Shown in pieces: positions 10,681-22,975 of a stretch of DNA of 64,000 nt. Source of the DNA: Luteirhabdus salina (lineage in GTDB: Bacteria > Bacteroidota > Bacteroidia > Flavobacteriales > Flavobacteriaceae); the NCBI GenBank assembly GCA_025384855.1, contig JALAHT010000001.1:1307064-1371063 (forward strand), read 5' to 3'. The position numbers and the translations under genes were made by a program. Position 1 is the first letter of the stretch, and each line of letters starts with the position of its first letter. Below the pieces are notes generated by a model. It ran no database searches. It was not told where the DNA came from and worked only from the letters and a program-made list of their open reading frames with translations.

Positions 10681-11019
10681 TTAACGCGTTTGGATTTCAT
10701 CGATTCTTACAGGATTGGCATCCTCACAGCGATTTGCCATTCGTAGGCCCGTAAATTTTATCCATACCTTCATTGCATCTTTCTTATAGGAAGCATCGAG
10801 ATTGGTAGGGTCTATTTTATAGGATAAACCTTCAACGTCCATGATATAGGGACAGCCCTCAGAGGAGCGATTTGCCATGATGGTTGCTTTGCTATATCCG
10901 CCTTCCGTCATTTGTACTGAATCGGACTCACTGGAAGTTTCAGAATCATTCATGTTTTTAGTGCTATTGCAGGCAAATATTAATAAGAAACTGCATAGGT
11001 ATATAACTTTTGCTATCAT
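10681..11019 (-). CDS. Small putative lipoprotein
   Basis: 112 aa. The hydrophobic signal peptide ends in a lipobox with C17 (LLIFAC-NST). A Ser/Glu/Asp-rich linker follows (about 18-36), then a small beta-rich domain (about 40-112) with SSEGCPYIMDVEG, a tyrosine/proline motif YKIDPTNLD and KVWIKFTGLR. Two further cysteines (C55 and one in NRCEDA) could form a disulphide in the periplasm. The pattern resembles a small flavobacterial lipoprotein family of unknown function. It is convergent with glyS. Confidence 0.65.
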   Translation of the reverse strand: MIAKVIYLCSFLLIFACNSTKNMNDSETSSESDSVQMTEGGYSKATIMANRSSEGCPYIMDVEGLSYKIDPTNLDASYKKDAMKVWIKFTGLRMANRCEDANPVRIDEIQTR

Positions 11020-11257: not shown

Positions 11258-13930
11258 ATGAAGTTGAAGTATTACTTAGTAACACTGCTTTTTCTAGGCG
11301 CTTTATCACTTTCGGCTCAAGATAAATTTGGGCCGACATCAAGCGGAACCTTAGAGGGTCCAGTTTATGTACCTAGTATTGCAGAACAAATTCAAAATGG
11401 AACCCTTAAGCTTGCGGAAGACTCAAGCGACAAGATGGGTCATCCTAAAGGCCGCCACGGGAATAGAGTGGTGCCAGGTAAAGGATTCCCAAAGGAAGGT
11501 CAAATTGACGAAAAACTTCAGGAGCAGCAAGCAACTGAATTGCAGCGTGTTCAGCCGCCGACATTAACTTTTTTATCGACAACTAATACGGCTACCCCTT
11601 CGGATCCGACAGGAGCGGCAGGCCCAAACCATTACGTTGCTGCATGGAATACCGCATTCCGAATATTCGACAAAAATGGAAATCCGCTAACGCCAGCAGC
11701 CTCTCTTGCAACGCTGTTTCCGGGAAATGCAATTGGTGACCCAATTGTTTTTTATGATGCAGAAGCAGATCGTTTCGTAGTCACAGAATTCGATAATAAT
11801 CCGAACGGATTTAACGTTGCGGTTTGTCAAGGATCAGATCCCGTTAATGATGGATGGCATGTCTATACCACTGGCTTCGGGACTGGGGCATTTCCAGATT
11901 ACACAAAATTTTCTGTATTTGGAGATGTTTACATGGTTACGGCCAATGTAAATAATGGAGCGAATGGTGACCGTGTATTTGCGGTGGAGCGAAATGAAAT
12001 GTTGAACGGAGACCCTGCGCAGTTCGTGGGCTTCCCACTACCAGGAATCTCAACATTTGGTTTTTATAGTCCACAGGCTTTTCATACCACAGACGATCAG
12101 TTAGCACCTGCTGGTACACCTGTGCCAATTGTTTATATGCAGGATGATGCTTGGGCTGGAGTAAGTGATGACCATCTTAAGATATGGAACGCTGAAGTAG
12201 ATTGGAGTAATATTGCGAATTCTACTATTTCAGCGGCTCAGGAAATTACTACCGAAGACTTTATTGGCGTATTTGATGGGGGAAGCTTTAGTAATTTACC
12301 CCAACCCGTTGGACCCGATCAGGATGCCTTACAAGCCACAATTATGAACCAAGCGCAGTATCGTCGTTTTGGGACTTATAACTCCGCGGTTTTTAACTTT
12401 GTAATCGATACGGATACAGGTGGTGGTGAGTTAGCCGGTATTCGGTGGTATGAGCTGCGTCAAACAGCAGATGGACAACCTTGGACCATTCATCAAGAAG
12501 GAACCTATGTTTCACCGGTTAACAATAAAAATGCATTTTCTGGTAGTATGGCCATGAACAGCAATGGAGATATTGGTATGGGCTATACAACGGTAACGAG
12601 TACCGAGCGTGTTGCCATTTATTATACGGGACGTTTCGCTAGCGATCCGCTTAACGTTATGACGGTTTCTGAGGAACTTATTTTCCAGAGTACAGGTAAC
12701 AATCCGTCTAACCGACTGGCAGATTATACTCATCTAACAGTAGACCCTGTAGATGATTCATTCTGGCACGTCGCTGAGGTATTTGATCCGACACGCCGTG
12801 ATGTGGTGGCTAATTTTTCACTTACACCTCCCCAACCAGACGATATAGGGGTTACAGAAATTACTACACCAGTAGACGGTCCATTAACTGCTGCAGAAGA
12901 TGTTAGTGTCATGATTCGAAATTTTGGTAGTAATGATGTTACAGATCCTGAGGTACAATATACAATTGATGCAGGGACACCTGTTGTGGAAACTTATAGC
13001 GGAACAATCGCCGCGGGTGAAATGGTACCGTACCTTTTCTCTACCACTGCAGATTTATCTACAGCCGGGCAGACATATACAATAGAGGCACGTACCAATC
13101 TTCCTGGCGATTCTAATCCGACCAACGATGCAACTACCAAAGATGTTACGAATGGTCTAATTTATTGTATCCCTACTGCCACTCAAGGATGTAATGTTGA
13201 TGGTATAAAGAAGTTTGTCCTCAATACTATTGATGCAGATGACGGAGGAAGTGGTTGTAATACAGAGCCTTCGGGAAGTCCTCAAGGATATTCTGATAGA
13301 ACAGATCTGTCAACACAATTGAGCAACGAAAGCGGTTCGAATGTCTATACTTTACAGGCACAGCAGAATTGGTCTGGTGGACCTGGCGTTGAAGCGCTTT
13401 CTGTTTGGATCGACTTCGATGATAATGGTACTTTTGATGCTTCTGAACAACTTATTGCTGGTGAATTCTTCCAGGAGGCAGGTGTTTTAGAGGATTTCAC
13501 TCTTACAATTCCGGTGGGGGCTGCTTTAGGTTCTCACGTTTTGAGAGCGAAGGCGATTGATACTTCTGCCGATGGCGACATTAACAATCCTTGTAGCGAT
13601 TTTGCTTTTGGAGAAGTTCAGGATTATACCGTGGTAATTGAGGGAGTGCTGTCTACTCCGGATCCAACGATTTCCGAAGGTGAATTAATTGTTACCTCAC
13701 TGCCAAACAATCAGTTTGAAATTTCGTTAGTAACATCTTTCGACGGTACAGCGTCTATAGCTGTTTATAATATGTTAGGTCAAACATTAGCCTTTAATAA
13801 TCTATCGAAAGATGGAGATCGCTATGTTTACGATTTAGATATGTCGTATGTTTCATCTGGAGTTTACCTAATTAAAATAGGAGATGAAGCAAGTAAAACG
13901 TATCAATCAGCTAAAATTGTGGTAAAATAA
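11258..13930 (+). CDS. T9SS-secreted multidomain protein, paralogue 1 (core + CARDB + GEVED)
   Basis: 890 aa. Signal peptide (1-20, ending SLSA-Q), a short conserved pro-region with PSIAEQIQNGT and VVPGKG (71-76), and a large core domain (about 110-520) shared with the next two genes. Core landmarks are PSDPTGAAGPNH, FDNNPNGFNVAVCQG, MQDDAWAGVSDDHLKIW, DALQATIMNQAQ and WYELRQT. A CARDB-like adhesion domain (about 527-630), a GEVED domain (about 635-795, WIDFDDNGTFD, FGEVQDYTV) and a type A T9SS sorting domain (about 800-890, YNMLGQ and DMSYVSSGVYLIKI) follow. It should be exported across the outer membrane and cell-attached or released. The core's function is unknown to me; repeated Asp/Gly turns suggest a beta-propeller. 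Confidence 0.85.
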   Translation: MKLKYYLVTLLFLGALSLSAQDKFGPTSSGTLEGPVYVPSIAEQIQNGTLKLAEDSSDKMGHPKGRHGNRVVPGKGFPKEGQIDEKLQEQQATELQRVQPPTLTFLSTTNTATPSDPTGAAGPNHYVAAWNTAFRIFDKNGNPLTPAASLATLFPGNAIGDPIVFYDAEADRFVVTEFDNNPNGFNVAVCQGSDPVNDGWHVYTTGFGTGAFPDYTKFSVFGDVYMVTANVNNGANGDRVFAVERNEMLNGDPAQFVGFPLPGISTFGFYSPQAFHTTDDQLAPAGTPVPIVYMQDDAWAGVSDDHLKIWNAEVDWSNIANSTISAAQEITTEDFIGVFDGGSFSNLPQPVGPDQDALQATIMNQAQYRRFGTYNSAVFNFVIDTDTGGGELAGIRWYELRQTADGQPWTIHQEGTYVSPVNNKNAFSGSMAMNSNGDIGMGYTTVTSTERVAIYYTGRFASDPLNVMTVSEELIFQSTGNNPSNRLADYTHLTVDPVDDSFWHVAEVFDPTRRDVVANFSLTPPQPDDIGVTEITTPVDGPLTAAEDVSVMIRNFGSNDVTDPEVQYTIDAGTPVVETYSGTIAAGEMVPYLFSTTADLSTAGQTYTIEARTNLPGDSNPTNDATTKDVTNGLIYCIPTATQGCNVDGIKKFVLNTIDADDGGSGCNTEPSGSPQGYSDRTDLSTQLSNESGSNVYTLQAQQNWSGGPGVEALSVWIDFDDNGTFDASEQLIAGEFFQEAGVLEDFTLTIPVGAALGSHVLRAKAIDTSADGDINNPCSDFAFGEVQDYTVVIEGVLSTPDPTISEGELIVTSLPNNQFEISLVTSFDGTASIAVYNMLGQTLAFNNLSKDGDRYVYDLDMSYVSSGVYLIKIGDEASKTYQSAKIVVK

Positions 13931-13957
13931 CAATTTGTTTTTCATTCATAAATTTAG

Positions 13958-13986
13958 AGCGGACCCATAGTGGTCCGCTTTTTTTC
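13958..13986 (+). terminator. Rho-independent terminator after T9SS paralogue 1
   Basis: AGCGGACC (13958-13965) pairs with GGTCCGCT (13972-13979), followed by a T-run. Confidence 0.88.
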
Positions 13987-14060
13987 TATCTCAGGCTATT
14001 ACCCTATTAATCCTGTAGGCGTTTCTATTTTGTTAATTCCTGAAATTTAGCTCATAATAA

Positions 14061-14091
14061 TTGTTAAGAGAACTTTAAAGTTTTATTTTTA
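14061..14091 (+). promoter_or_regulatory. Predicted promoter of T9SS paralogue 2
   Basis: TTG (14061-14063), 20-nt spacer, TATTTTTA (14084-14091), 35 nt before the ATG. Same -7 octamer and similar spacing as in front of the other two paralogues. Confidence 0.5.
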
Positions 14092-14126
14092 TCCCTCTTT
14101 AATTAAAATTAACTAAACTATTTCTA

Positions 14127-16301
14127 ATGAAAATTAATTACGTAATCACAGCCATTCTTATGATGGCAGGATCTTTTGCTTTTGCTCAAGATGCGAGTAA
14201 TTTAGGTCCGACAGATGCTGGGCTGATGGCACCACCGCACGTGGTTCCTAGTATTGCTGAACAAATGCGAAACGGCACTTTTATTGAAGCAGATAATACT
14301 CCGATGGAAGGTAAGCCAAAACGAAAAATAGGTAATACTATCGTCCCAGGGAAAGGCTCTAGTGGTATCGATGGTGCGCTTCAGACAGACCCTCCCTTCA
14401 GAACTGGGAAAGCACCAATATTAACATTCGAAGCAGATATTTCTCAAGCAACCCCTTCAGATCCGACAGGAGCAGCAGGGCCGAATCATTTTATCGGCGG
14501 CTGGAATTCTGCTTTCCGAATTTTTGATAAAACAGGAACGCCATTAACTGGTGAAGCGTCGCTTGCTACCATTTTTCCAGGAAATGCTATCGGAGACCCA
14601 ATTATTTTCTTCGACCCCTATATCGAAAATGAACCAGGAGAACCAAGAGGGCGTTTTGTAATCACAGAATTCGACAACAATCCAAACGGATTTAACGTCG
14701 CGGTTTGTCAAGGGCCAGATCCTGTAAATGATGGATGGTATGTATACACCACTGGTTTTGGAACAGGTGCTTTTCCAGATTATACAAAATTTGCACTTTG
14801 GTCAGATGCGTACTACGTAACCGCTAATATCGGCTCCTCGAACCGTGTATTCGCTGTCGAACGCGAAAAAATGGCAAAAGGTGAGCCGGCACAATTTTTA
14901 GCATTCCCGCTTCCAGGAATTGCTACTAACGGATTCTATAGCCCACACGGCTTCAATGCAACAGGAGGTTCTGAGCCAGAAATAGGAAACTTTCCGCTTG
15001 TGTATCTTCAGGATGACGCTTGGGGCGGAGTTTCCGAGGATCATTTAAAGATTTGGACCATTAATGTCGATTGGGATACGCCGAGTAATTCTACAATTTC
15101 AAACCCAGCACAGATCATTCCGACAACCGATTTCATCAGCGTTTTCGATTTCGGATCCTTCGCAAATTTAGATCAGCCTTCGGGACCAGATATCGATGCA
15201 CTTCAGGCGACGGTAATGAATCAAGCACAGTTTAGAATGTTTGATGGTTATAATTCAGCATTGTTGAACTTTGTAGTTGACACCGATCCTACTGGTGGGG
15301 AATTGGCAGGAATTAGATGGTACGAATTGCGCCAAACAGAACAAGGAGAGCCATGGACTATTCATCAAGAAGGTACGTATACCGCTCCTGATGGAAGACA
15401 TGCTTTTTCGGGAAGTATGGCAATGGACATCTTCGGAAATATCGGGATTGGATATAGTAGCCTAAGCAGTACCGAAAGTCTTTCTATTCGTTATACGGGT
15501 CGATTGGCTGATGATCCACTTGGGGATATGACTATTGCTGAAGAGCTGATAGCTCAGGGTGGAAATAGCCCAACGACTCGAGTGGCCGATTATGTACATT
15601 TGAGTATAGATCCTACTAACGACCAAACGTTTTGGCATATTGCAGAATACTTCGATCCTACACGTCGTGACATTGTTGGTGTTTTTGAACATGCTGTACC
15701 AGAAGCAAATGATGTAGCAATTATTAATTTAACACCAAATACAGGTGAACTAACAGATGCTGAGGAAATTACAGTCGAGATCCAAAATTATGGTACGGCT
15801 ACACAGAGCAATATTCCGGTAAGCTATTCTATAGATGGCGGAGCATTGGTGGAAGAAACCTATACTGGTTCGTTAGCACCGGGTGCTGTTGATACATATA
15901 CATTCTCTGAAACTGCAGATTTATCAGGTCTTCAAACCTACAGAATAGAGACTCGCACATCTTTGGGTACCGACGCTGTTCCAGAAAATGATATCTATGG
16001 AGAAAATGTTCGAAACGAAGAAGAACTATCCATTGCAGATCTTCAAATTGAAAACGCAGAACTTATTATCTCTTCTGCCGATAACAAGCATTTCGATATT
16101 CAATTACGAACTATTTATGACGACAAGTTACATTTAGCCGTATATGATATTAATGGTAAATTGCTAACCTCCAATTACCTTGTTAATGAAGGTGGTCGCT
16201 ATACATATAATTTAGATATGTCATATGTGGCATCTGGAACGTATCTAGTTTCATTAGGAGAAGGAGAGCTTCAAAAATCTTCAAAGATTATTGTTAGATA
16301 A
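14127..16301 (+). CDS. T9SS-secreted multidomain protein, paralogue 2 (core + CARDB)
   Basis: 724 aa. Signal peptide (1-20, FAFA-Q), pro-region with PSIAEQMRNGT and IVPGKG (72-77), a core domain (about 105-520) closely similar to paralogue 1 (PSDPTGAAGPNHFIGGWNS, LQDDAWGGVSEDHLKIW, DALQATVMNQAQFRMF, WYELRQTEQGEPW), one CARDB-like domain (about 526-626) and a T9SS type A domain (about 634-724, YDINGK, DMSYVASGTYLVSL). It lacks the GEVED domain of its neighbours and is therefore the shortest of the three. It has its own promoter and terminator, so it need not be co-transcribed. Function is unknown; an adhesive or substrate-binding surface role is inferred from the modules. Confidence 0.85.
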   Translation: MKINYVITAILMMAGSFAFAQDASNLGPTDAGLMAPPHVVPSIAEQMRNGTFIEADNTPMEGKPKRKIGNTIVPGKGSSGIDGALQTDPPFRTGKAPILTFEADISQATPSDPTGAAGPNHFIGGWNSAFRIFDKTGTPLTGEASLATIFPGNAIGDPIIFFDPYIENEPGEPRGRFVITEFDNNPNGFNVAVCQGPDPVNDGWYVYTTGFGTGAFPDYTKFALWSDAYYVTANIGSSNRVFAVEREKMAKGEPAQFLAFPLPGIATNGFYSPHGFNATGGSEPEIGNFPLVYLQDDAWGGVSEDHLKIWTINVDWDTPSNSTISNPAQIIPTTDFISVFDFGSFANLDQPSGPDIDALQATVMNQAQFRMFDGYNSALLNFVVDTDPTGGELAGIRWYELRQTEQGEPWTIHQEGTYTAPDGRHAFSGSMAMDIFGNIGIGYSSLSSTESLSIRYTGRLADDPLGDMTIAEELIAQGGNSPTTRVADYVHLSIDPTNDQTFWHIAEYFDPTRRDIVGVFEHAVPEANDVAIINLTPNTGELTDAEEITVEIQNYGTATQSNIPVSYSIDGGALVEETYTGSLAPGAVDTYTFSETADLSGLQTYRIETRTSLGTDAVPENDIYGENVRNEEELSIADLQIENAELIISSADNKHFDIQLRTIYDDKLHLAVYDINGKLLTSNYLVNEGGRYTYNLDMSYVASGTYLVSLGEGELQKSSKIIVR

Positions 16302-16325
16302 CAATGATAAATAGTTTAGATGTTA

Positions 16326-16358
16326 ATAGCCCGGCCAATCTGGCCGGGCTATTTATTT
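16326..16358 (+). terminator. Rho-independent terminator after T9SS paralogue 2
   Basis: A perfect 12-bp stem: ATAGCCCGGCCA (16326-16337) with TGGCCGGGCTAT (16341-16352), a 3-nt loop and T-rich sequence after it. Confidence 0.9.
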
Positions 16359-16492
16359 GTAATTTTATAAAAACAAGTATCTATATGACTTAAATCATTC
16401 TTCGACAAACACTTACATTGGAGCTCGACAACCATTAGTATTCCATGTTTAAATTTCGATAAGTTAATAAATGTCAATAGTTCCTAAAAGCC

Positions 16493-16523
16493 TTGTTAAA
16501 TGCTCTTCAATCCATTATTTTTA
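16493..16523 (+). promoter_or_regulatory. Predicted promoter of T9SS paralogue 3
   Basis: TTG (16493-16495), 20-nt spacer, TATTTTTA (16516-16523). It matches the elements before paralogues 1 and 2. It lies downstream of an in-frame start at 16500, which supports the ATG at 16551 as the real start. Confidence 0.5.
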
Positions 16524-16550
16524 GGGCTTTTAATTTTAAACCCAACATTC

Positions 16551-19481
16551 ATGAAAATTAGATTTTCTACTTTTATTTTTCTCTTTGCCATGATTTTGGG
16601 AGTTTCTGCTCAAGAAACCGATCAGCATAAGCCCATAGAGATCGGGACGGTAGACAACTTCCAACATGTGCAATCAATTGCTTCCAGAACGAATTTACCT
16701 CCGGCAACCACCAAAAAAGCAGAAATGCAAGATGGTCGTTCCTCAAGAAACGTAGTTGTTCCTGGAAAAGATCAACAAACCGAAAACGATTTCTTTGCCT
16801 CAAATCCACATCAATTGGAAAAGGCGTATCAAGCGAAATCACCATCCCTTGTTTTTGATGCTGCAGCGTCAAACTCACAACCTACAGACCCTTCATTGGC
16901 AGTAGGACCAGACCATGTATTTGTAGTTTTTAATACTGGTTTCACAATTTATGATAAATCTGGTAACCAATTGGTGCCTCAAACCGCTCCAACGGCAATT
17001 TTCCCTAGCGGAGGATGCTGTGATTTAACGGTATCATACGATAACCTCGCGGAACGATGGGTTATCACTTTCCTTGGAGGGGGTGCTCAAGTGGCCGTTT
17101 CCGATGGGCCAGACCCAATAAATGATGGTTGGTATACATATACCATTAATACTATCAATGACTATCAAAAACTATCTGTTTGGAGCGATGGGTATTATAT
17201 TACTGATAATACTTCAAACGCTAGCAACCGAGTGTATGCGTTGGAACGTGATGCTTTCCTAGCGGGAGACCCTTCCGCTCAGGTGTTGACTTTCGATCTA
17301 CCCGGAATTGCTACAAACGGATTTTACAGCCCACAAGCTCTAAACATTACAGACGATAATCATCCAGCTCCTGGAGCTGCTCCAATTGTTTATCTACAGG
17401 ATGATGCATGGAGTGGAGTTTCTGAAGATCATGTGAAACTATGGACCATCGATGTAGACTGGGATACACCATCAAACTCTACCGTTTCTAGTCCAACAGA
17501 ATTGGTTACGACAGAATTTATTTCAGTTTTCGACGGTGGTAGCTTTTCAAACTTGACACAGCCTGGTGGTGGTATTCCGATTGATGCACTTCAAGCGACT
17601 ATCATGAACCAAGCACAATTTAGAAAATTTGGTAGCCATAACTCTGCAGTTTTCAACTTTGTTGTAGACACAGATGCATCTTCAGGTGAGCGTGCAGGTG
17701 TTCGTTGGTTAGAGCTTCGTCAAGCTGGCGATGGACAACCATGGAGCATTTATCAGGAAGGAACCTATACTTCACCAGATGGAAAACATGCATGGCATGC
17801 GAGTATGATGATGGACCTTCAAGGAAATATTGGTATGGGATACTCAGGAATGGCTGGTCCAGATACGCCTAACCCAACCGATTTTAGAGTTAGTTCTTAT
17901 TACACAGGCCGCTATGCTGCTGATCCACTAGGAACCATGACAGTAGGTGAAGAGCTTATAGCTTCAGGTAATGCAAACATTCCAGGTTTACGTTATGGGG
18001 ATTATAGTAAAATAGACCTTGATCCAGTAAACGACAAAGAATTTTGGTTCATCAATGAATATATGAACAGTGGTCGTAAGGATGTCGTTGGGGTATTCCA
18101 AATTGCACCAAATTTCAACGATGATGTAGGAGTGGTAAGTATCGATCAGCCTGTTACAGGTACATTAAGTGCTACTGAAACAGTAGAGATTACCATTTTC
18201 AACTATGGGCAGAATCCGGCTTCAAACTTTGATGTTACATATCAAGTCGATGGAGGTCCTGTAGTGACTGAAACCTTCACAGGAACCATTAACTCTGCTG
18301 AAACAGCTACGTATACATTTACAGCAACAGCAGATCTTTCAACAGTAGGTCAAACGTATTCTATTACTTCATCAACCGATTATGGAGCAGATGAAGACAA
18401 TACTAACGATAGCACAACCAAAGAGGTTACCTATCTTGAACCTAATGATATTGGTGTTAGCAGTATCCTTTCTCCTAATTCAGGTGAAAACTTAACGGCT
18501 TCTGAAACGGTTACAGTAACCATCAATAACTATGGAGGTGAACCTCAAAGTGATTTCGATGTAAGCTATACCATAAACGATGGAACTCCAGTTACCGAAA
18601 CTGTTGCAGGTCCGTTGGAAGGAAACTCAGATGTTGATTATACTTTTACCCAAACAGCCGATTTGTCAGCGTTTGGAACGTATAACTTCACTGCATATAC
18701 CGATTTAGCAGGCGATTCTGATGAAACAAACGATGAAGCTACCAAAACGGTAGTGAATTCAAACTGTCAACCTCAAAGTGACTGTACATTAGGTGACGGT
18801 ATCCGTTTATTCGAATTGGGTACTATTAGCAACGCTTCAGATTGCGAGCCTGATGGTTATGGCGACTTTACAAACTTAATTACCGACCTTCAGCAGGATA
18901 CAACGGTACCTTGTACTGTTACTACTGAATACGGAAATCAGTTTGTGACGGTTTGGATCGACTTTAATGACGATTTTGTATTTACGAGCGATGAAAAAAT
19001 TGTTGATAATTATGAAATTGCCGATGGTGAAACTACCGGTACGTTTACAGAAACGTTCGATGCGGTAATCCCTGCAGGAGCAACTCTTGGTGAGCACTTA
19101 ATGCGTGCCAAAACAAACTGGAACGCAGCAGTGCCAGAAGATGCTTGTGATGAGACAACTTTTGGTGAAACAGAAGATTATCGCGTGAATATCGTGGAAG
19201 AATTAGGTGTGAATGAAAATGCTTTGGCTGACAGTGAATTGATTATTTCAAGTTCAGATCAAAAGATTTTTGATATTTCATTGACGACCCAAAGCGATAT
19301 CGATAAGCTAGAAGTTACCGTTCATAATGTATTAGGACAACAGTTGGTTTTCTATCGTAAGGATCTAGAAAACGGATCGTTCAACTATACTTTAGATATG
19401 TCGTATGTAAGCAGCGGCGTGTACCTAGTACGTGTTGGAAACAGCCAATTCGGAAAAGTTGAAAAGATTATTGTTCAATAA
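16551..19481 (+). CDS. T9SS-secreted multidomain protein, paralogue 3 (core + 2 CARDB + GEVED)
   Basis: 976 aa from the ATG at 16551, which opens a clean signal peptide (1-20, GVSA-Q). The pro-region has VVPGKD (69-74). The core (about 105-520) is more divergent: the loop around FPSGGCCDLTVSYD differs, but LQDDAWSGVSEDHVKLW, DALQATIMNQAQFRKF and WLELRQAGDGQPW are kept. Then come two tandem CARDB-like domains (about 522-627 and 631-733), a GEVED domain (about 738-881, WIDFNDDFVF, FGETEDYRV) and a T9SS type A domain (about 885-976, HNVLGQ, DMSYVSSGVYLVRV). It has the longest stalk of the three. An earlier in-frame start would include the predicted promoter and mask the signal peptide. Confidence 0.85.
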   Translation: MKIRFSTFIFLFAMILGVSAQETDQHKPIEIGTVDNFQHVQSIASRTNLPPATTKKAEMQDGRSSRNVVVPGKDQQTENDFFASNPHQLEKAYQAKSPSLVFDAAASNSQPTDPSLAVGPDHVFVVFNTGFTIYDKSGNQLVPQTAPTAIFPSGGCCDLTVSYDNLAERWVITFLGGGAQVAVSDGPDPINDGWYTYTINTINDYQKLSVWSDGYYITDNTSNASNRVYALERDAFLAGDPSAQVLTFDLPGIATNGFYSPQALNITDDNHPAPGAAPIVYLQDDAWSGVSEDHVKLWTIDVDWDTPSNSTVSSPTELVTTEFISVFDGGSFSNLTQPGGGIPIDALQATIMNQAQFRKFGSHNSAVFNFVVDTDASSGERAGVRWLELRQAGDGQPWSIYQEGTYTSPDGKHAWHASMMMDLQGNIGMGYSGMAGPDTPNPTDFRVSSYYTGRYAADPLGTMTVGEELIASGNANIPGLRYGDYSKIDLDPVNDKEFWFINEYMNSGRKDVVGVFQIAPNFNDDVGVVSIDQPVTGTLSATETVEITIFNYGQNPASNFDVTYQVDGGPVVTETFTGTINSAETATYTFTATADLSTVGQTYSITSSTDYGADEDNTNDSTTKEVTYLEPNDIGVSSILSPNSGENLTASETVTVTINNYGGEPQSDFDVSYTINDGTPVTETVAGPLEGNSDVDYTFTQTADLSAFGTYNFTAYTDLAGDSDETNDEATKTVVNSNCQPQSDCTLGDGIRLFELGTISNASDCEPDGYGDFTNLITDLQQDTTVPCTVTTEYGNQFVTVWIDFNDDFVFTSDEKIVDNYEIADGETTGTFTETFDAVIPAGATLGEHLMRAKTNWNAAVPEDACDETTFGETEDYRVNIVEELGVNENALADSELIISSSDQKIFDISLTTQSDIDKLEVTVHNVLGQQLVFYRKDLENGSFNYTLDMSYVSSGVYLVRVGNSQFGKVEKIIVQ

Positions 19482-19502
19482 TATTTTTGAATCTTATAAT
19501 TG

Positions 19503-19532
19503 AAAAGCTCCCTTTCGAGGGAGCTTTTTTAG
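19503..19532. terminator. Bidirectional rho-independent terminator
   Basis: AAAAGCTCCCT (19503-19513), TTCG tetraloop, AGGGAGCTTTT (19518-19528), flanked by A- and T-runs. It lies between the convergent T9SS paralogue 3 and the large outer-membrane protein gene and can serve both strands. Confidence 0.9.
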
Positions 19533-19534
19533 TT

Positions 19535-22500
19535 TTAAAAGAACGCACGTAGCTGAACACTACCTGTATGAACCGCCTTACTGGTTTCGCTCTTCCTTCC
19601 GAAATAGGAAAGGTTGGCATCTAAATATTTTGTAATACGCTTTTGAAATAATAGTTGCCACGTAAAATTTGTACCCGGCTGCAAACCTTCCAACATCTGA
19701 TAGGCCACTGGCGAAAAGGCACTTCCTGAAAATTCATTTTGAATAAAGGTGAATTCCCCATTAATTGAGATTTTCGCAGCATTCGCATACGCAAAGGCCA
19801 AGCCGGCTTTTTGTTGATCCAAGGATTCTTCTGCTCCCAAAGCGTTGTTCTTATTGCCAAACTGATAAAAAGCGTCAAACCTTGTTTGTGGATTCAGCAA
19901 ATACGACACTTTAGGTTGAAACTCATACGTATCCAATTTGAAATTCCTACCTGGAAAGTTCTGCGAGGTACTTTCATTAATGCCTAAGGCACCGTTGAAG
20001 TTCAATAGCCAACTTTCCCATATTTTATGGTTAAACTTCAACTGATGACTCTGTAATTCTGAAGACTGAAGTCCAACCGATAATAAGTTGTCATTCGATG
20101 TCGAAACAAATGTATAGCTAGTAGTATACTGCTGTTTCCCTCTGTTGAAGAACAGCGCATTTCTAAAATTCAAGGTCAACCCCAATTGATCGTCTCCACC
20201 ATCCTTAAACGGATTCAAATTGAAACCATCATCATTTCGCCGAACCCTACGATCAATAACATAAGAGGTCTGGTTATAAAATTTTGACAATAGCTTTAAA
20301 AAGCCCTCTTTTTGCGACCATTGCTGCGGATTTAACGTTAGTATCTGACTAAACTTATTCTGTCGCGTTTTGATGAAAATCTGGTTGGGTAATAACACCC
20401 GAACATACTCCGCTTGATCTTGAAATTGGGCGATTTCAAATTCCTCTAATTCCTGAATTCCGTTATCGTTATAATCGTTCCAGGTATAAATACCCTGTCC
20501 CGGCTCGGTTTCTACATAGGTGAATTCCTGTTGGGGTACCACCCCATTGCTGGATTCCAAAGCAGTATTCAATCGGATCGCATTTTGAAATAGCGATTGG
20601 TTGTACAAAATTCTTGAATTCAAGGATTTTTCCGTCTGCCGCAAGTTATTTCCCAAACTGTCCACCCGATTTGCATACTCCACTTCCCGATAATTGGCAA
20701 AGACCGAAAGTTGTGATGTCTTGGATTGAATGATCTTTGAACGTGCATAAATAGTCTGTGCCCTGTTGGCGCGTTCCAAAGCACCCTCCCGAACACTATC
20801 ATTAATCTGCTGTCGATACCCTGCCGTTACATACACATCGGTGCTGTCACCAATACCTGCAAATACTTCATACGATTGAAGCCGTTGGCTAATTGGGTCT
20901 AATTGCTCTGTTTCCTTGATTAATACCTTATTCTCCTCTAACCCCAGCTTTCCGCCAATCCAAACCTTATCTAAAGAGTAGGCCATCACATTGTATAATC
21001 GACTAAACTCAGTGTCCAGCGAATCGCTTTTGCTGTTCAATACGCTGGCCTGTAATGTGTTGGTGAGTTTTTTCATCTTAATGGCCGAAGAAATAACATG
21101 TCGTACCCCACTAAAATTATCAGAATATCCCAAATGTTGAAACTCGTAGCGCCCACCGCCAACATCGGGATCGGCTACTTCAAATCCTGCCGTAATATAC
21201 TGTTGATTGCCCATTGGGTTCGTAAGGTTCCAGTCGCGATTGAATTCAATATTGTACAAACGCTCGATTGTCCTAAAATCACGTTGAATAAAATCCCCCG
21301 TCGCGAAGGCATTCACCACTAAAGTATCTGCCGTCTTCAAAAGTTGTTGCTTTGCGGCTAATCGGCCTGCAAAGCCATCATTATTGGTATCATCCAAATT
21401 CGAAAATAAATTCAGGTCATTCCGACTTCCAGCGACTTCAAAAGCCACATCCGTTTTTTCGGTGGGAGTGTAACGACCATTTACACCAGCAATCTGTAGC
21501 TTCGTTGGAGCATTCAACGGAATAATCGGAGCGTAATTTCCCTGGGGAACACCGCCGACCGGGGCCACATATTCAAAAATTCGGTTAATGGCACCCGTTT
21601 CACTAATGATATAATCCCCTTGATTGTCGCCAACCAAAGTGAAGCGAACCGTAAATAATTCATCTTCAGGATTGTTCGAATACACAAAGATCTCTTCACC
21701 ATTCAAGATTTCCTTTCTGTATAGAATCTTATTTTCTGAAAAGGTCGTAGGTACCGCCGACGGAGCTGTCATTTCATCTTGATCATCGCCCGCATTACTC
21801 AAAATTTCAACCTGCTCTTCCGAGAGGTTTTGTTGAAGTGGTTGGTTCTTTGCATCGCTTTCAGAATAGACATAGGTCCCAATTTGAAGCTTTTCTGAAG
21901 TATGTTCGGCACCGCCATAGCCTATAAAGCGCGTATAATTCCTATCCGTGTATTGGTATTCCACCACGATTCGCATATTGGAAGTTATAGGATAGGTAGG
22001 ATTGAAGCGAATTTCACCCGCATTGTAATCGATGACATAATCATTATTCTCACCGCGCTCCAACAACAGTCCGTTGACATACACCCGTTCACTTCCTGAA
22101 ACGATCAGAATAAATAATTCACCATTGGGTCCGACCAATTTATAAGGCCCTTGATTTCCCTCTTCACCCTGAAACTGACTTCGCTGAAAAACACCTCTAA
22201 CCAAGGCGCCCGAGGCAAATGCTGAGGTCTGCGAGCCGTTTTCATGCGTCATGGTGCCGCCTAGAGAAATTCCCTGCACCTTTTTGGTAAACCGCGCAAA
22301 ATAGCTGTCATTATTCTGTAAATCGACATCCCCGGCACGTATCTTCCAATTGTCGCCGAACAGTTCAATAAAAATTTGATCGAATTCATCTAAATTCTGG
22401 GAATAACCACCTTCTTGATTCGGGATATTGGCGTCCTGAATCGATGCCCGAATTCCCACCTTATCGCTTAACTTTCCCGTTATTTGTAAATCCAACTGCG

Positions 22501-22975
22501 AGTTCACTACCACATTCTGATTATTTCCGATCGTGATCCCCCTAGAAATACTTCCCGAGGTATTCAGCCCGTCAAAAGGAATGATCGGTTCTTGATCTGA
22601 AGGTTCGTCTAAAGAATACAGTCGCTCGATTGCACCAGTATTCTCAACAATTTGGGAGGGATCGAATTCAAAATAATCGCGGGTCAAGAAGTCGGGATAC
22701 CGAAGGTATTCCACTGTAATGGAATCTTCCGACGTTGTTGTTTCTTCTGTAAAGTATAGCAACGCCTTTTGAAAATCGACACGGTACAAGGAGGTGTCAA
22801 TTACCTTTCCCTGTCGGTCCAAAATACGAAAGCGATTAGGGTTCAGTGAAACCGAATCCAATACAATGCTATCAGAAACAGGAACACGAATCGATCGTTC
22901 GTTCGAAGGTATCTCCTGTGCCAAGGCTAAGCTTCCAATACACAAAGCAAAAAGTAAGGGCCATACTTTCATCAA
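19535..22975 (-). CDS. Very large outer-membrane beta-barrel protein
   Basis: 1146 aa with a signal peptide (1-19, SLALA-Q). After an N-terminal beta domain, residues about 135-240 contain a striking segment: SGSISRGITIGNNQ, VNSQLDLQITGKLSDKVGIRASI, DANIPNQEGGYSQNLDEFDQIFIELFG, then WKIRAGDVDLQ. This resembles a segment found in SprA-like giant translocon proteins and related barrel proteins of Bacteroidota. Much of the rest (about 450-1146) alternates amphipathic strands ending in aromatic residues, as in a large barrel, and the protein ends in LRAFF with a C-terminal phenylalanine typical of outer-membrane proteins. It is far shorter than SprA itself (over 2000 aa). Role uncertain; surface export or structure is possible. 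Confidence 0.65.
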   Translation of the reverse strand: MMKVWPLLFALCIGSLALAQEIPSNERSIRVPVSDSIVLDSVSLNPNRFRILDRQGKVIDTSLYRVDFQKALLYFTEETTTSEDSITVEYLRYPDFLTRDYFEFDPSQIVENTGAIERLYSLDEPSDQEPIIPFDGLNTSGSISRGITIGNNQNVVVNSQLDLQITGKLSDKVGIRASIQDANIPNQEGGYSQNLDEFDQIFIELFGDNWKIRAGDVDLQNNDSYFARFTKKVQGISLGGTMTHENGSQTSAFASGALVRGVFQRSQFQGEEGNQGPYKLVGPNGELFILIVSGSERVYVNGLLLERGENNDYVIDYNAGEIRFNPTYPITSNMRIVVEYQYTDRNYTRFIGYGGAEHTSEKLQIGTYVYSESDAKNQPLQQNLSEEQVEILSNAGDDQDEMTAPSAVPTTFSENKILYRKEILNGEEIFVYSNNPEDELFTVRFTLVGDNQGDYIISETGAINRIFEYVAPVGGVPQGNYAPIIPLNAPTKLQIAGVNGRYTPTEKTDVAFEVAGSRNDLNLFSNLDDTNNDGFAGRLAAKQQLLKTADTLVVNAFATGDFIQRDFRTIERLYNIEFNRDWNLTNPMGNQQYITAGFEVADPDVGGGRYEFQHLGYSDNFSGVRHVISSAIKMKKLTNTLQASVLNSKSDSLDTEFSRLYNVMAYSLDKVWIGGKLGLEENKVLIKETEQLDPISQRLQSYEVFAGIGDSTDVYVTAGYRQQINDSVREGALERANRAQTIYARSKIIQSKTSQLSVFANYREVEYANRVDSLGNNLRQTEKSLNSRILYNQSLFQNAIRLNTALESSNGVVPQQEFTYVETEPGQGIYTWNDYNDNGIQELEEFEIAQFQDQAEYVRVLLPNQIFIKTRQNKFSQILTLNPQQWSQKEGFLKLLSKFYNQTSYVIDRRVRRNDDGFNLNPFKDGGDDQLGLTLNFRNALFFNRGKQQYTTSYTFVSTSNDNLLSVGLQSSELQSHQLKFNHKIWESWLLNFNGALGINESTSQNFPGRNFKLDTYEFQPKVSYLLNPQTRFDAFYQFGNKNNALGAEESLDQQKAGLAFAYANAAKISINGEFTFIQNEFSGSAFSPVAYQMLEGLQPGTNFTWQLLFQKRITKYLDANLSYFGRKSETSKAVHTGSVQLRAFF

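What the first reader, a model, noticed from the sequence alone, without database searches (positions are those of the whole stretch)
11258..19481. Tandem array of three T9SS-secreted paralogues with shuffled stalk modules
Seen: three consecutive genes share a core of about 410 residues (LQDDAWxGVS-DH-K-W, DALQATxMNQAQFR, W-ELRQ) but differ in what follows: CARDB+GEVED, CARDB only, and CARDBx2+GEVED, each capped by a type A T9SS sorting domain. I do not recognise the core. Paralogue 3 is the most divergent. This reads as duplication followed by module gain or loss, giving surface proteins with the same head on stalks of different length.
Basis: partly seen in the sequence, partly recalled or inferred. 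Interest (0 to 1): 0.62.

Follow-up and report, generated by a model that had tools for sequence, protein, structure and literature searches.

The report
Propeller heads on interchangeable surface stalks
Three neighbouring genes of a marine bacterium make predicted surface proteins that share one highly conserved, unnamed seven-bladed propeller head but carry stalks of different length; in related bacteria the stalks appear to be traded between heads, and what the head binds or cuts is still unknown.

Summary
Three ORFs (11258-13930, 14127-16301, 16551-19481) share a head (66% and 56% identity to paralogue 2) and differ in stalk: CARDB+GEVED, CARDB, CARDBx2+GEVED, each ending in a type A T9SS sorting domain. 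The genome has the T9SS sortase and SprA. AlphaFold models of paralogues 2 and 3 give a confident propeller, seven-bladed by its structural matches. No Pfam or NCBIfam model was found over the head; relatives occur in Deinococcus, Streptomyces and Gemmatirosa. The three heads are old groups shared by several Flavobacteriaceae genera at one conserved site beside glyS. Heads and tails have different histories: tails of paralogue-3-type heads do not form a clade (AU p 2.4e-6), and in Altibacter-type relatives a P-domain sits where GEVED is. So 'shuffled stalks' is supported and goes beyond gain or loss. The genes are under strong purifying selection (omega 0.01-0.04; GlyRS 0.011). Function is inferred only: the head handles a conserved ligand or substrate, most likely a glycan; enzyme versus lectin is unresolved. 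Each gene is followed by its own terminator, so they are probably three units. New variant of a known kind: modular, fibrillar-adhesin-like T9SS cargo.

The parts
11258..13930 (+). Paralogue 1, 890 aa: signal peptide (by inspection), N-terminal VPSIA/VPGKG region, propeller head, CARDB-like, GEVED, T9SS type A sorting domain
11549..12847 (+). Propeller head of paralogue 1 (residues 98-530)
   Evidence: profile match; homologous to the modelled heads of paralogues 2 and 3; not modelled itself
12836..13147 (+). CARDB-like module of paralogue 1 (residues 527-630)
   Evidence: family model built here, which includes this stretch; not listed by Pfam
13166..13639 (+). GEVED module region of paralogue 1 (residues 637-794)
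   Evidence: Pfam PF20009 3e-17
13691..13927 (+). T9SS type A sorting domain of paralogue 1
   Evidence: TIGR04183 38.6 bits
13956..13981 (+). Terminator-like hairpin after paralogue 1 (10 pairs, 6 G-C, T tail)
14127..16301 (+). Paralogue 2, 724 aa: head, one CARDB, T9SS type A sorting domain
   Evidence: AlphaFold model pLDDT 90.7
14406..15716 (+). Propeller head of paralogue 2 (residues 94-530)
15705..16010 (+). CARDB module of paralogue 2
   Evidence: Pfam 3.3e-5
16068..16298 (+). T9SS type A sorting domain of paralogue 2
   Evidence: TIGR04183 30.6 bits
16325..16353 (+). Terminator-like hairpin after paralogue 2 (13 pairs, 8 G-C)
16551..19481 (+). Paralogue 3, 976 aa (ORF opens at 16500): head, CARDB x2, GEVED, T9SS type A sorting domain
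16830..18125 (+). Propeller head of paralogue 3
   Evidence: AlphaFold model pLDDT 93.9, pTM 0.93
18120..18752 (+). Two CARDB modules of paralogue 3
   Evidence: Pfam 5.1e-9, 2 stretches
18765..19193 (+). GEVED module region of paralogue 3
   Evidence: Pfam 4e-15
19245..19478 (+). T9SS type A sorting domain of paralogue 3
   Evidence: TIGR04183 29.3 bits
19502..19529 (+). Terminator-like hairpin after paralogue 3 (12 pairs, 5 G-C)

Best explanation
The array encodes three T9SS cargo proteins that display the same type of propeller head on the cell surface at different distances from it. Shown by sequence or prediction: sorting domain, T9SS genes in the genome, propeller fold, stalk modules, a terminator-like hairpin after each gene, old paralogy, and head and tail histories that disagree. 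Inferred: the protein crosses the outer membrane through the T9SS and is anchored there, the CARDB/GEVED modules act as spacer, and the head engages one conserved ligand or substrate, most likely a polysaccharide, through polar residues that the predicted strand order places at the mouth of the propeller (Asp at the start of the inner strand of blades 1, 2, 3 and 7, plus Arg485 and Gln350, paralogue 2 numbering). The tandem heads offer repeats through which recombination can trade stalk-anchor cassettes, so a cell keeps the same head chemistry at several reaches, probably under separate transcription. Whether the head cuts or only binds is left open.
For: Architecture; sortase family 1389 bits, SprA family 2897 bits, 65 sorting-domain matches in the same genome. 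Fold: pLDDT 90.7 and 93.9, pTM 0.82 and 0.93; best structural matches of the head are propellers (YncE Z 24.3, rmsd 3.0, 292 aligned; CIAO1 Z 24.2; CylK Z 23.9, rmsd 3.7, 331 aligned; PLL lectins Z about 22; differences under 1 are ties). 7 of Foldseek's first 10 rows for the head are glycosidases, a levansucrase or lectins, at about 10% identity. D112, D157, D218, D488, N127, Q350 and R485 are kept in at least 95% of 95 family heads, at least 85% of 14 mid-distance rows and 17 of 17 far rows. Whole-gene omega against Luteirhabdus pelagi 0.0125, 0.0234, 0.0394, GlyRS 0.0113; 1, 2 and 1 of the 3, 4 and 13 amino-acid differences lie in the heads. Head groups with SH-aLRT 98, 98 and 100; head-tail discordance AU p 2.4e-6; P-domain in place of GEVED. 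11 of 11 multi-gene arrays at the glyS site hold at least two different stalks (not independent: L009/L010 and L043/L046 are close pairs, L004 is the window's near twin). Hairpins after each gene.
Against: Ligand and chemistry are untested. Conserved residues are not clearly on one face: of 19 residues 9 lie in D-A/B-C loops (133 of 415 positions), 5 in A-B/C-D loops (98 of 415), 5 in strands; no significance test was run, loop borders were set by hand from the predicted secondary structure, and D218 was counted as loop though DSSP calls it strand. Some of these residues may be structural. Structural matches also include many WD40 and other propellers. Two pairs elsewhere (L018, L073) carry the same stalk type twice. 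CARDB as a spacer is recalled, not tested.
Confidence: 0.55

Rival explanations
1. The head is an enzyme: a new propeller family of glycoside hydrolases or lyases with acid residues at the channel mouth, tethered to the surface so that products stay near the cell.
For: Charged residues kept in rows from four phyla; omega near that of GlyRS; first three Foldseek rows for the head are glycoside hydrolases; in Bacteroidales a subtilase (L066) and a propeller with a weak BNR_2 match (L083) beside head genes carry a similar tail; two Deinococcus relatives have no stalk.
Against: No catalytic residue was mapped onto a known enzyme; no GH or PL family was listed by Pfam for the proteins scanned; solved structures by sequence gave 0 rows and, by profile, 107 rows at E<=10 of which the 60 shown are calmodulin and peroxiredoxin-like, best E 0.035; no glycan-degrading gene among the 10 flanking genes scanned.
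Confidence: 0.3
2. The head is a lectin-like adhesin and the proteins are fibrillar-adhesin-like: N-terminal binding domain, stalk, C-terminal anchor.
For: Architecture fits the definition of fibrillar-adhesin-like proteins in PMC8286594 (passages); GEVED was defined in CshA-like adhesins, where domain shuffling is put forward as a driver (PMC10952558, passages); PLL lectins are among the best structural matches (TMq 0.50; Z about 22).
Against: Stalks are short (1 to 3 modules) and absent in two relatives of 613 aa (L043, L046); very few amino-acid changes in the heads between the window's genome and L. pelagi, where a target-chasing adhesin would be expected to diversify (inference); the propeller match is not specific to lectins.
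Confidence: 0.3
3. The proteins have a structural or self-directed role (matrix, cell-cell contact, envelope) rather than acting on an environmental target.
For: Very strong constraint; a conserved long neighbour gene of unknown function beside the heads in 21 of 80 loci.
Against: The neighbour gene is in 28 of 60 genomes, 22 of them without a strong head match, and match coordinates put it within 1 to 753 bp of glyS, too close for a head gene, in G025, G010, G030, G026 and G028, so no functional pairing is shown; strong head matches occur in only 8 of 60 genomes, own included (8 of the 37 of the same family), so the head is dispensable in the family.
Confidence: 0.15
4. Head-tail discordance is an artefact of fast or convergent evolution of short tail domains, and the history is simple duplication with loss of modules.
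For: Root state CARDBx2+GEVED under parsimony (cost 16, others 17-18); single-copy Leeuwenhoekiella genes at the same site have the long stalk; the tail alignment has 242 columns and 7 of 24 inner branches are open.
Against: AU p 2.4e-6 with a likelihood difference of 364; tails of two P3-type heads (L011, L049) are 69% and 73% identical to tails of P1-type heads; P-domain in place of GEVED; tails shared at up to 88% identity between neighbouring genes whose heads show no detectable similarity (L083).
Confidence: 0.12

Closest known systems
Fibrillar-adhesin-like proteins (definition in PMC8286594; CshA NR2-GEVED proteins in PMC10952558; passages seen)
   Same: Extracellular, N-terminal head, stalk module (GEVED), C-terminal anchor (Por_Secre_tail is in the anchor list of PMC8286594), domain shuffling
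   Different: Head is a propeller instead of NR2; no adhesion shown; 0 to 3 CARDB/GEVED modules in the Flavobacteriaceae members; T9SS sorting domain
T9SS type A cargo proteins
   Same: TIGR04183 sorting domain, T9SS genes in the genome, signal peptide by inspection
   Different: Head without any named family; tandem array with differing stalks
Glycoside hydrolase propellers BACINT_00347 and BT3686 (GH145; family name recalled)
   Same: First Foldseek rows for the head (5mum E 5.6e-6, TMq 0.42; 5muk TMq 0.46); from Bacteroides (recalled)
   Different: 10% identity, rmsd about 10 A over the Foldseek alignment; no active-site residue mapped
Photorhabdus PLL lectins
   Same: Propeller, Z about 22, 303-309 aligned, rmsd 3.4-3.6
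   Different: 5-7% identity in those rows; no shared motif looked for
YncE and the CylK propeller
   Same: Among the highest Z-scores for the head (24.3 and 23.9)
   Different: 6-11% identity; fold level only

Membership tests
Fibrillar-adhesin-like proteins (PMC8286594) | Extracellular | tested here: met
   By sequence only: hydrophobic N-terminus with an A|Q site by inspection (no signal-peptide program run) and T9SS sorting domain
Fibrillar-adhesin-like proteins (PMC8286594) | Adhesive region near a terminus | not testable with these tools
   Head is N-terminal; binding needs an experiment
Fibrillar-adhesin-like proteins (PMC8286594) | Stalk domains | tested here: met
   GEVED (called a stalk domain in PMC10952558) in paralogues 1 and 3; CARDB in 2 and 3. 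CARDB occurs 0 times in the main texts of PMC8286594 and PMC9210967, so paralogue 2, with CARDB only, is the weaker case
Fibrillar-adhesin-like proteins (PMC8286594) | Surface anchor | tested here: met
   Por_Secre_tail in all three
Fibrillar-adhesin-like proteins (PMC8286594) | Rigid rod formed by one or few chains | tested here: inconclusive
   Model of paralogue 2 has confident CARDB and sorting domains; rod shape was not measured
T9SS type A cargo | Type A C-terminal sorting domain over the curated cut-off | tested here: met
   38.6, 30.6, 29.3 bits; cut-off 23
T9SS type A cargo | T9SS sortase and translocon in the genome | tested here: met
   NF033707 1388.9 bits, TIGR04189 2897 bits, both over cut-off; other components not searched
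T9SS type A cargo | Secretion, cleavage and anchoring | not testable with these tools
   Experiment needed
Seven-bladed beta-propeller | Fold | tested here: met
   AlphaFold models of paralogues 2 and 3 and their structural matches; prediction, not a solved structure; blade count from matches and strand order
GH145 / GH43 / sialidase propeller glycosidases | Catalytic residues of the family in place | not testable with these tools
   No residue-level structural alignment or coordinates available
GH145 / GH43 / sialidase propeller glycosidases | Sequence membership | tested here: inconclusive
   No GH family listed by Pfam or NCBIfam for the proteins scanned; none among the 60 rows shown by profile against solved structures
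PLL-type lectins | Repeated sugar sites between blades | not tested
   Only fold similarity seen

The most novel reading that the evidence does not exclude
The locus is a small combinatorial display system: an unnamed propeller enzyme or receptor found in several phyla is kept nearly invariant while recombination between tandem copies trades stalk-anchor cassettes, and in Bacteroidales even passes similar tails between this propeller, a BNR-like propeller and subtilases, so that reach and anchoring evolve independently of head chemistry.
Probability: 0.3. Interest if true: 0.65.

Novelty: new variant of a known kind. Interest (0 to 1): 0.45.

Why it matters
It describes a head domain that the Pfam and NCBIfam copies searched here do not cover although relatives occur in four phyla, gives its predicted fold and most conserved residues, and shows T9SS cargo in which heads and stalk-anchor tails have separate histories. 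It makes two things testable: what the conserved head recognises or cuts, and whether stalk length sets reach at the cell surface.

Tried and rejected
Solved structures by sequence: paralogue 2 gave 0 rows; the profile of 95 heads gave 107 rows at E<=10, of which 60 were shown, calmodulin and peroxiredoxin-like, best E 0.035, taken as chance. Phages: no match; PHROGs and PADLOC: none. The idea that the neighbouring 1146-aa gene is a functional partner was dropped: it is in 28 of 60 genomes and lies next to glyS with no room for a head in five. The idea that conserved residues mark one face was tallied (9 of 19 against 133 of 415 positions) and not pressed; no test was run. Parsimony of stalk state on the head tree gives the long stalk at the root but CARDB+GEVED at the ancestor of the three groups (16 against 17 for the long stalk); since tails move between heads this has little force. 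Whether the second CARDB of paralogue 3 was kept or regained is unclear: mean identity 0.47 to outgroup CARDB-b, 0.44 to CARDB-a. A recalled Bacteroidota promoter motif was not found in 196-308 bp upstream of the three genes, and sigma-70-like sites were not above chance (19 found, 25.2 expected). Papers: 'type IX secretion' with 'domain shuffling' gave 0; in the listings (20 of 31; 2 of 2; 20 of 67; 10 of 14; 2 of 2) no title or abstract opening was about this head; this library only. Structural families absent from the rows shown are not excluded. In the head-tail test the P3 group was defined by the head tree beforehand; the pair L011/L049 was picked after seeing its sorting-domain neighbours. 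In that nearest-neighbour check 22 of 34 sorting domains and 28 of 34 N-termini had their nearest row in the same head group.
Full report
Observation. Three + strand ORFs at 11258-13930, 14127-16301 and 16500-19481 encode 890, 724 and 993 aa. The third most likely starts at 16551 (976 aa), where MKIRF aligns with the other starts. Pfam and NCBIfam confirm GEVED in 1 and 3, CARDB in 2 and 3, and a type A T9SS sorting domain in all three. CARDB in paralogue 1 is not listed by Pfam but is homologous to the others. The head is 66% (1) and 56% (3) identical to that of paralogue 2, and three matches, all in this array, were found in the genome.

The head. No Pfam, NCBIfam, PADLOC or PHROGs family was listed over it in the window proteins. 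Pfam families found in 38 family members include no propeller and no glycosidase (which gives no positions), and 13 more distant relatives had no Pfam match over the head. AlphaFold with 88 and 95 aligned sequences gives all-beta models of mature paralogue 2 (pLDDT 90.7, pTM 0.82) and of the head of paralogue 3 (pLDDT 93.9, pTM 0.93). Structural matches are propellers: YncE Z 24.3 (rmsd 3.0, 292 aligned), CIAO1 Z 24.2, CylK Z 23.9 (3.7, 331), many WD40 domains and PLL lectins Z about 22, all within a few units; paralogue 2 gave propellers too. Foldseek ranks three glycoside hydrolases first (best E 5.6e-6), with lectins, GH43, GH93, levansucrase and sialidases further down, but also a semaphorin, a BAM-complex chain, clathrin and nucleoporins. 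Identity is about 10%, so this is fold, not membership. From the strand order, the N-terminal strand of the head seems to supply the outer strand of the last of seven blades (inference).

Distribution. A scan of one genome per species found 343 encoding stretches, of which the best 80 were kept; their titles are Bacteroidota names apart from one MAG labelled Chlorobiota. In 60 relatives, 8 genomes (own included, all among the 37 of the same family) have a strong match (E below 1e-100) and 13 any match. In 296 genomes of the phylum 39 have a match, 13 of them over nearly the whole head; the others match in pieces near its two ends. On plasmids there are four relatives at 31-33% identity: two Deinococcus, one Streptomyces, one Gemmatirosa. 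The two Deinococcus genes are annotated as hypothetical protein and end with the head. P110, D112, N127, D157, D163, R176, P199, D218, Q350, R485, D488, Y489, D495, P496 and W503 are kept in at least 95% of 95 family heads, at least 85% of 14 mid-distance rows (which include the four plasmid relatives) and at least 88% of 17 far rows. D112, D157, D218 and D488 stand at or just before the inner strand of blades 1, 2, 3 and 7, which would place them around the channel mouth; this is inferred from predicted strands. A tally of 19 conserved residues by loop type shows no clear one-sidedness.

History. A quick tree of 95 heads puts the three window heads into three groups (9 rows, SH-aLRT 98; 6 rows, 98; 12 rows, 100) within one clade of 29 rows (97), nearly all Flavobacteriaceae. 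The duplications therefore predate Luteirhabdus. Of 80 loci, 22 have glyS and 21 the 1146-aa gene flanking the heads as here. Single-copy Leeuwenhoekiella genes at this site have the long stalk. In G025, G010, G030 and G026, which have no head match, and in G028, whose heads lie on other contigs, glyS and the 1146-aa gene are 1 to 753 bp apart. So the site can be empty.

Stalks. Among 129 full-head ORFs (some near-identical, from overlapping fetches), 59 are CARDBx2+GEVED+sorting domain, 18 CARDB+sorting domain, 14 CARDB+GEVED+sorting domain, 8 sorting domain without these modules, the other 30 something else or incomplete; in the 95 tree rows 51 have the long form. In 38 members Pfam also finds PKD (11), CUB (9), BACON, MAM, fn3, P-domain and others. 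More than one full head occurs in 17 of 80 loci; 11 arrays at the glyS site each hold at least two stalk types, whereas L018 and L073 hold the same type twice. In three relatives of paralogue 3 (L010 and L046 Altibacter, L043 a Flavobacteriaceae MAG) the GEVED place is taken by a proprotein convertase P-domain.

Exchange of tails. For 27 chosen proteins with GEVED, heads form clean groups but tails (GEVED to the end) do not: holding the tails of the seven P3-type heads together costs 364 log-likelihood units, AU p 2.4e-6, and joining the P1 heads with L011 and L049 is rejected for heads (p 2.6e-85). All P1 tails plus these two are not one clade either (p 5e-40): P1 tails fall in three groups, each mixed with P3 tails. 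L011 and L049 heads are P3-type with tails 69% and 73% identical to P1-type tails. These are quick trees. In 9 of 99 family members the tail also matches another ORF of the same locus, up to 88% over 737 residues; only two such partners were identified, a subtilase (L066) and a protein with a weak BNR_2 match below cut-off (L083), and repeated modules such as BACON and PKD inflate some of these matches. The window heads contain direct repeats of 161-194 nt at 70-80% identity, possible substrates for recombination (inference).

Constraint and expression. Against L. pelagi (L004), whole-gene omega is 0.0125, 0.0234, 0.0394 for paralogues 1-3 and 0.0113 for GlyRS; 1, 2 and 1 amino-acid differences fall in the heads, of 3, 4 and 13 in all. 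Each gene is followed by a strong hairpin with a T tail (13956-13981, 16325-16353, 19502-19529), the three longest of 11 terminator-like sites (6.2 expected), so the genes are probably separate units. The T9SS sortase and SprA are present, with 65 sorting-domain matches.

Function. Export and anchoring follow from known biology of type A cargo (abstract openings seen), and GEVED as a stalk domain from PMC10952558 (passages). For the head, strong constraint, polar residues kept across phyla, stalkless relatives and tail sharing with an enzyme point to a conserved ligand or substrate, most likely a glycan (inference). I cannot decide between cutting and binding. L. pelagi is described as a non-motile seawater bacterium (PMC8590676, listing with abstract opening only), which weakly fits an environmental target.

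Verdict. It is a new variant of a known kind, modular fibrillar-adhesin-like T9SS cargo, with an unnamed propeller head of unknown chemistry.

Noticed in passing
window 19535-22975 (-): 1146-aa gene without Pfam match, flanking the heads in 21 of 80 loci; a stretch at about 21869-22105 matches the SprA family weakly (17.6 bits, E 5e-4, below cut-off).
   Followed up: partly
L083:7704-16595, L067:854-8856, L066:2802-11441: In Bacteroidales, genes beside the head gene carry a similar tail on a different N-terminal part: up to 88% identity over 737 residues in L083, 57% over 834 in L067, 59% over 190 in L066 (a subtilase).
   Followed up: partly
L117-L133: Far relatives match the head profile near its two ends but not in the middle, suggesting a larger unnamed propeller clan with a variable part.
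   Followed up: partly
L137:907-3996: Gemmatirosa plasmid relative of the head matched in two parts with an insertion between them; the record has no annotation.
   Followed up: no
window 10681-11019 (-): Small gene between glyS and the array; found in 15 of 80 loci, at 36-45% identity outside L004, at varying places relative to the head genes.
   Followed up: no
window about 14244-14357 (paralogue 2 residues 40-77): Conserved N-terminal region with VPSIA and VPGKG motifs ahead of the propeller, confidently modelled in part; role unknown.
   Followed up: no
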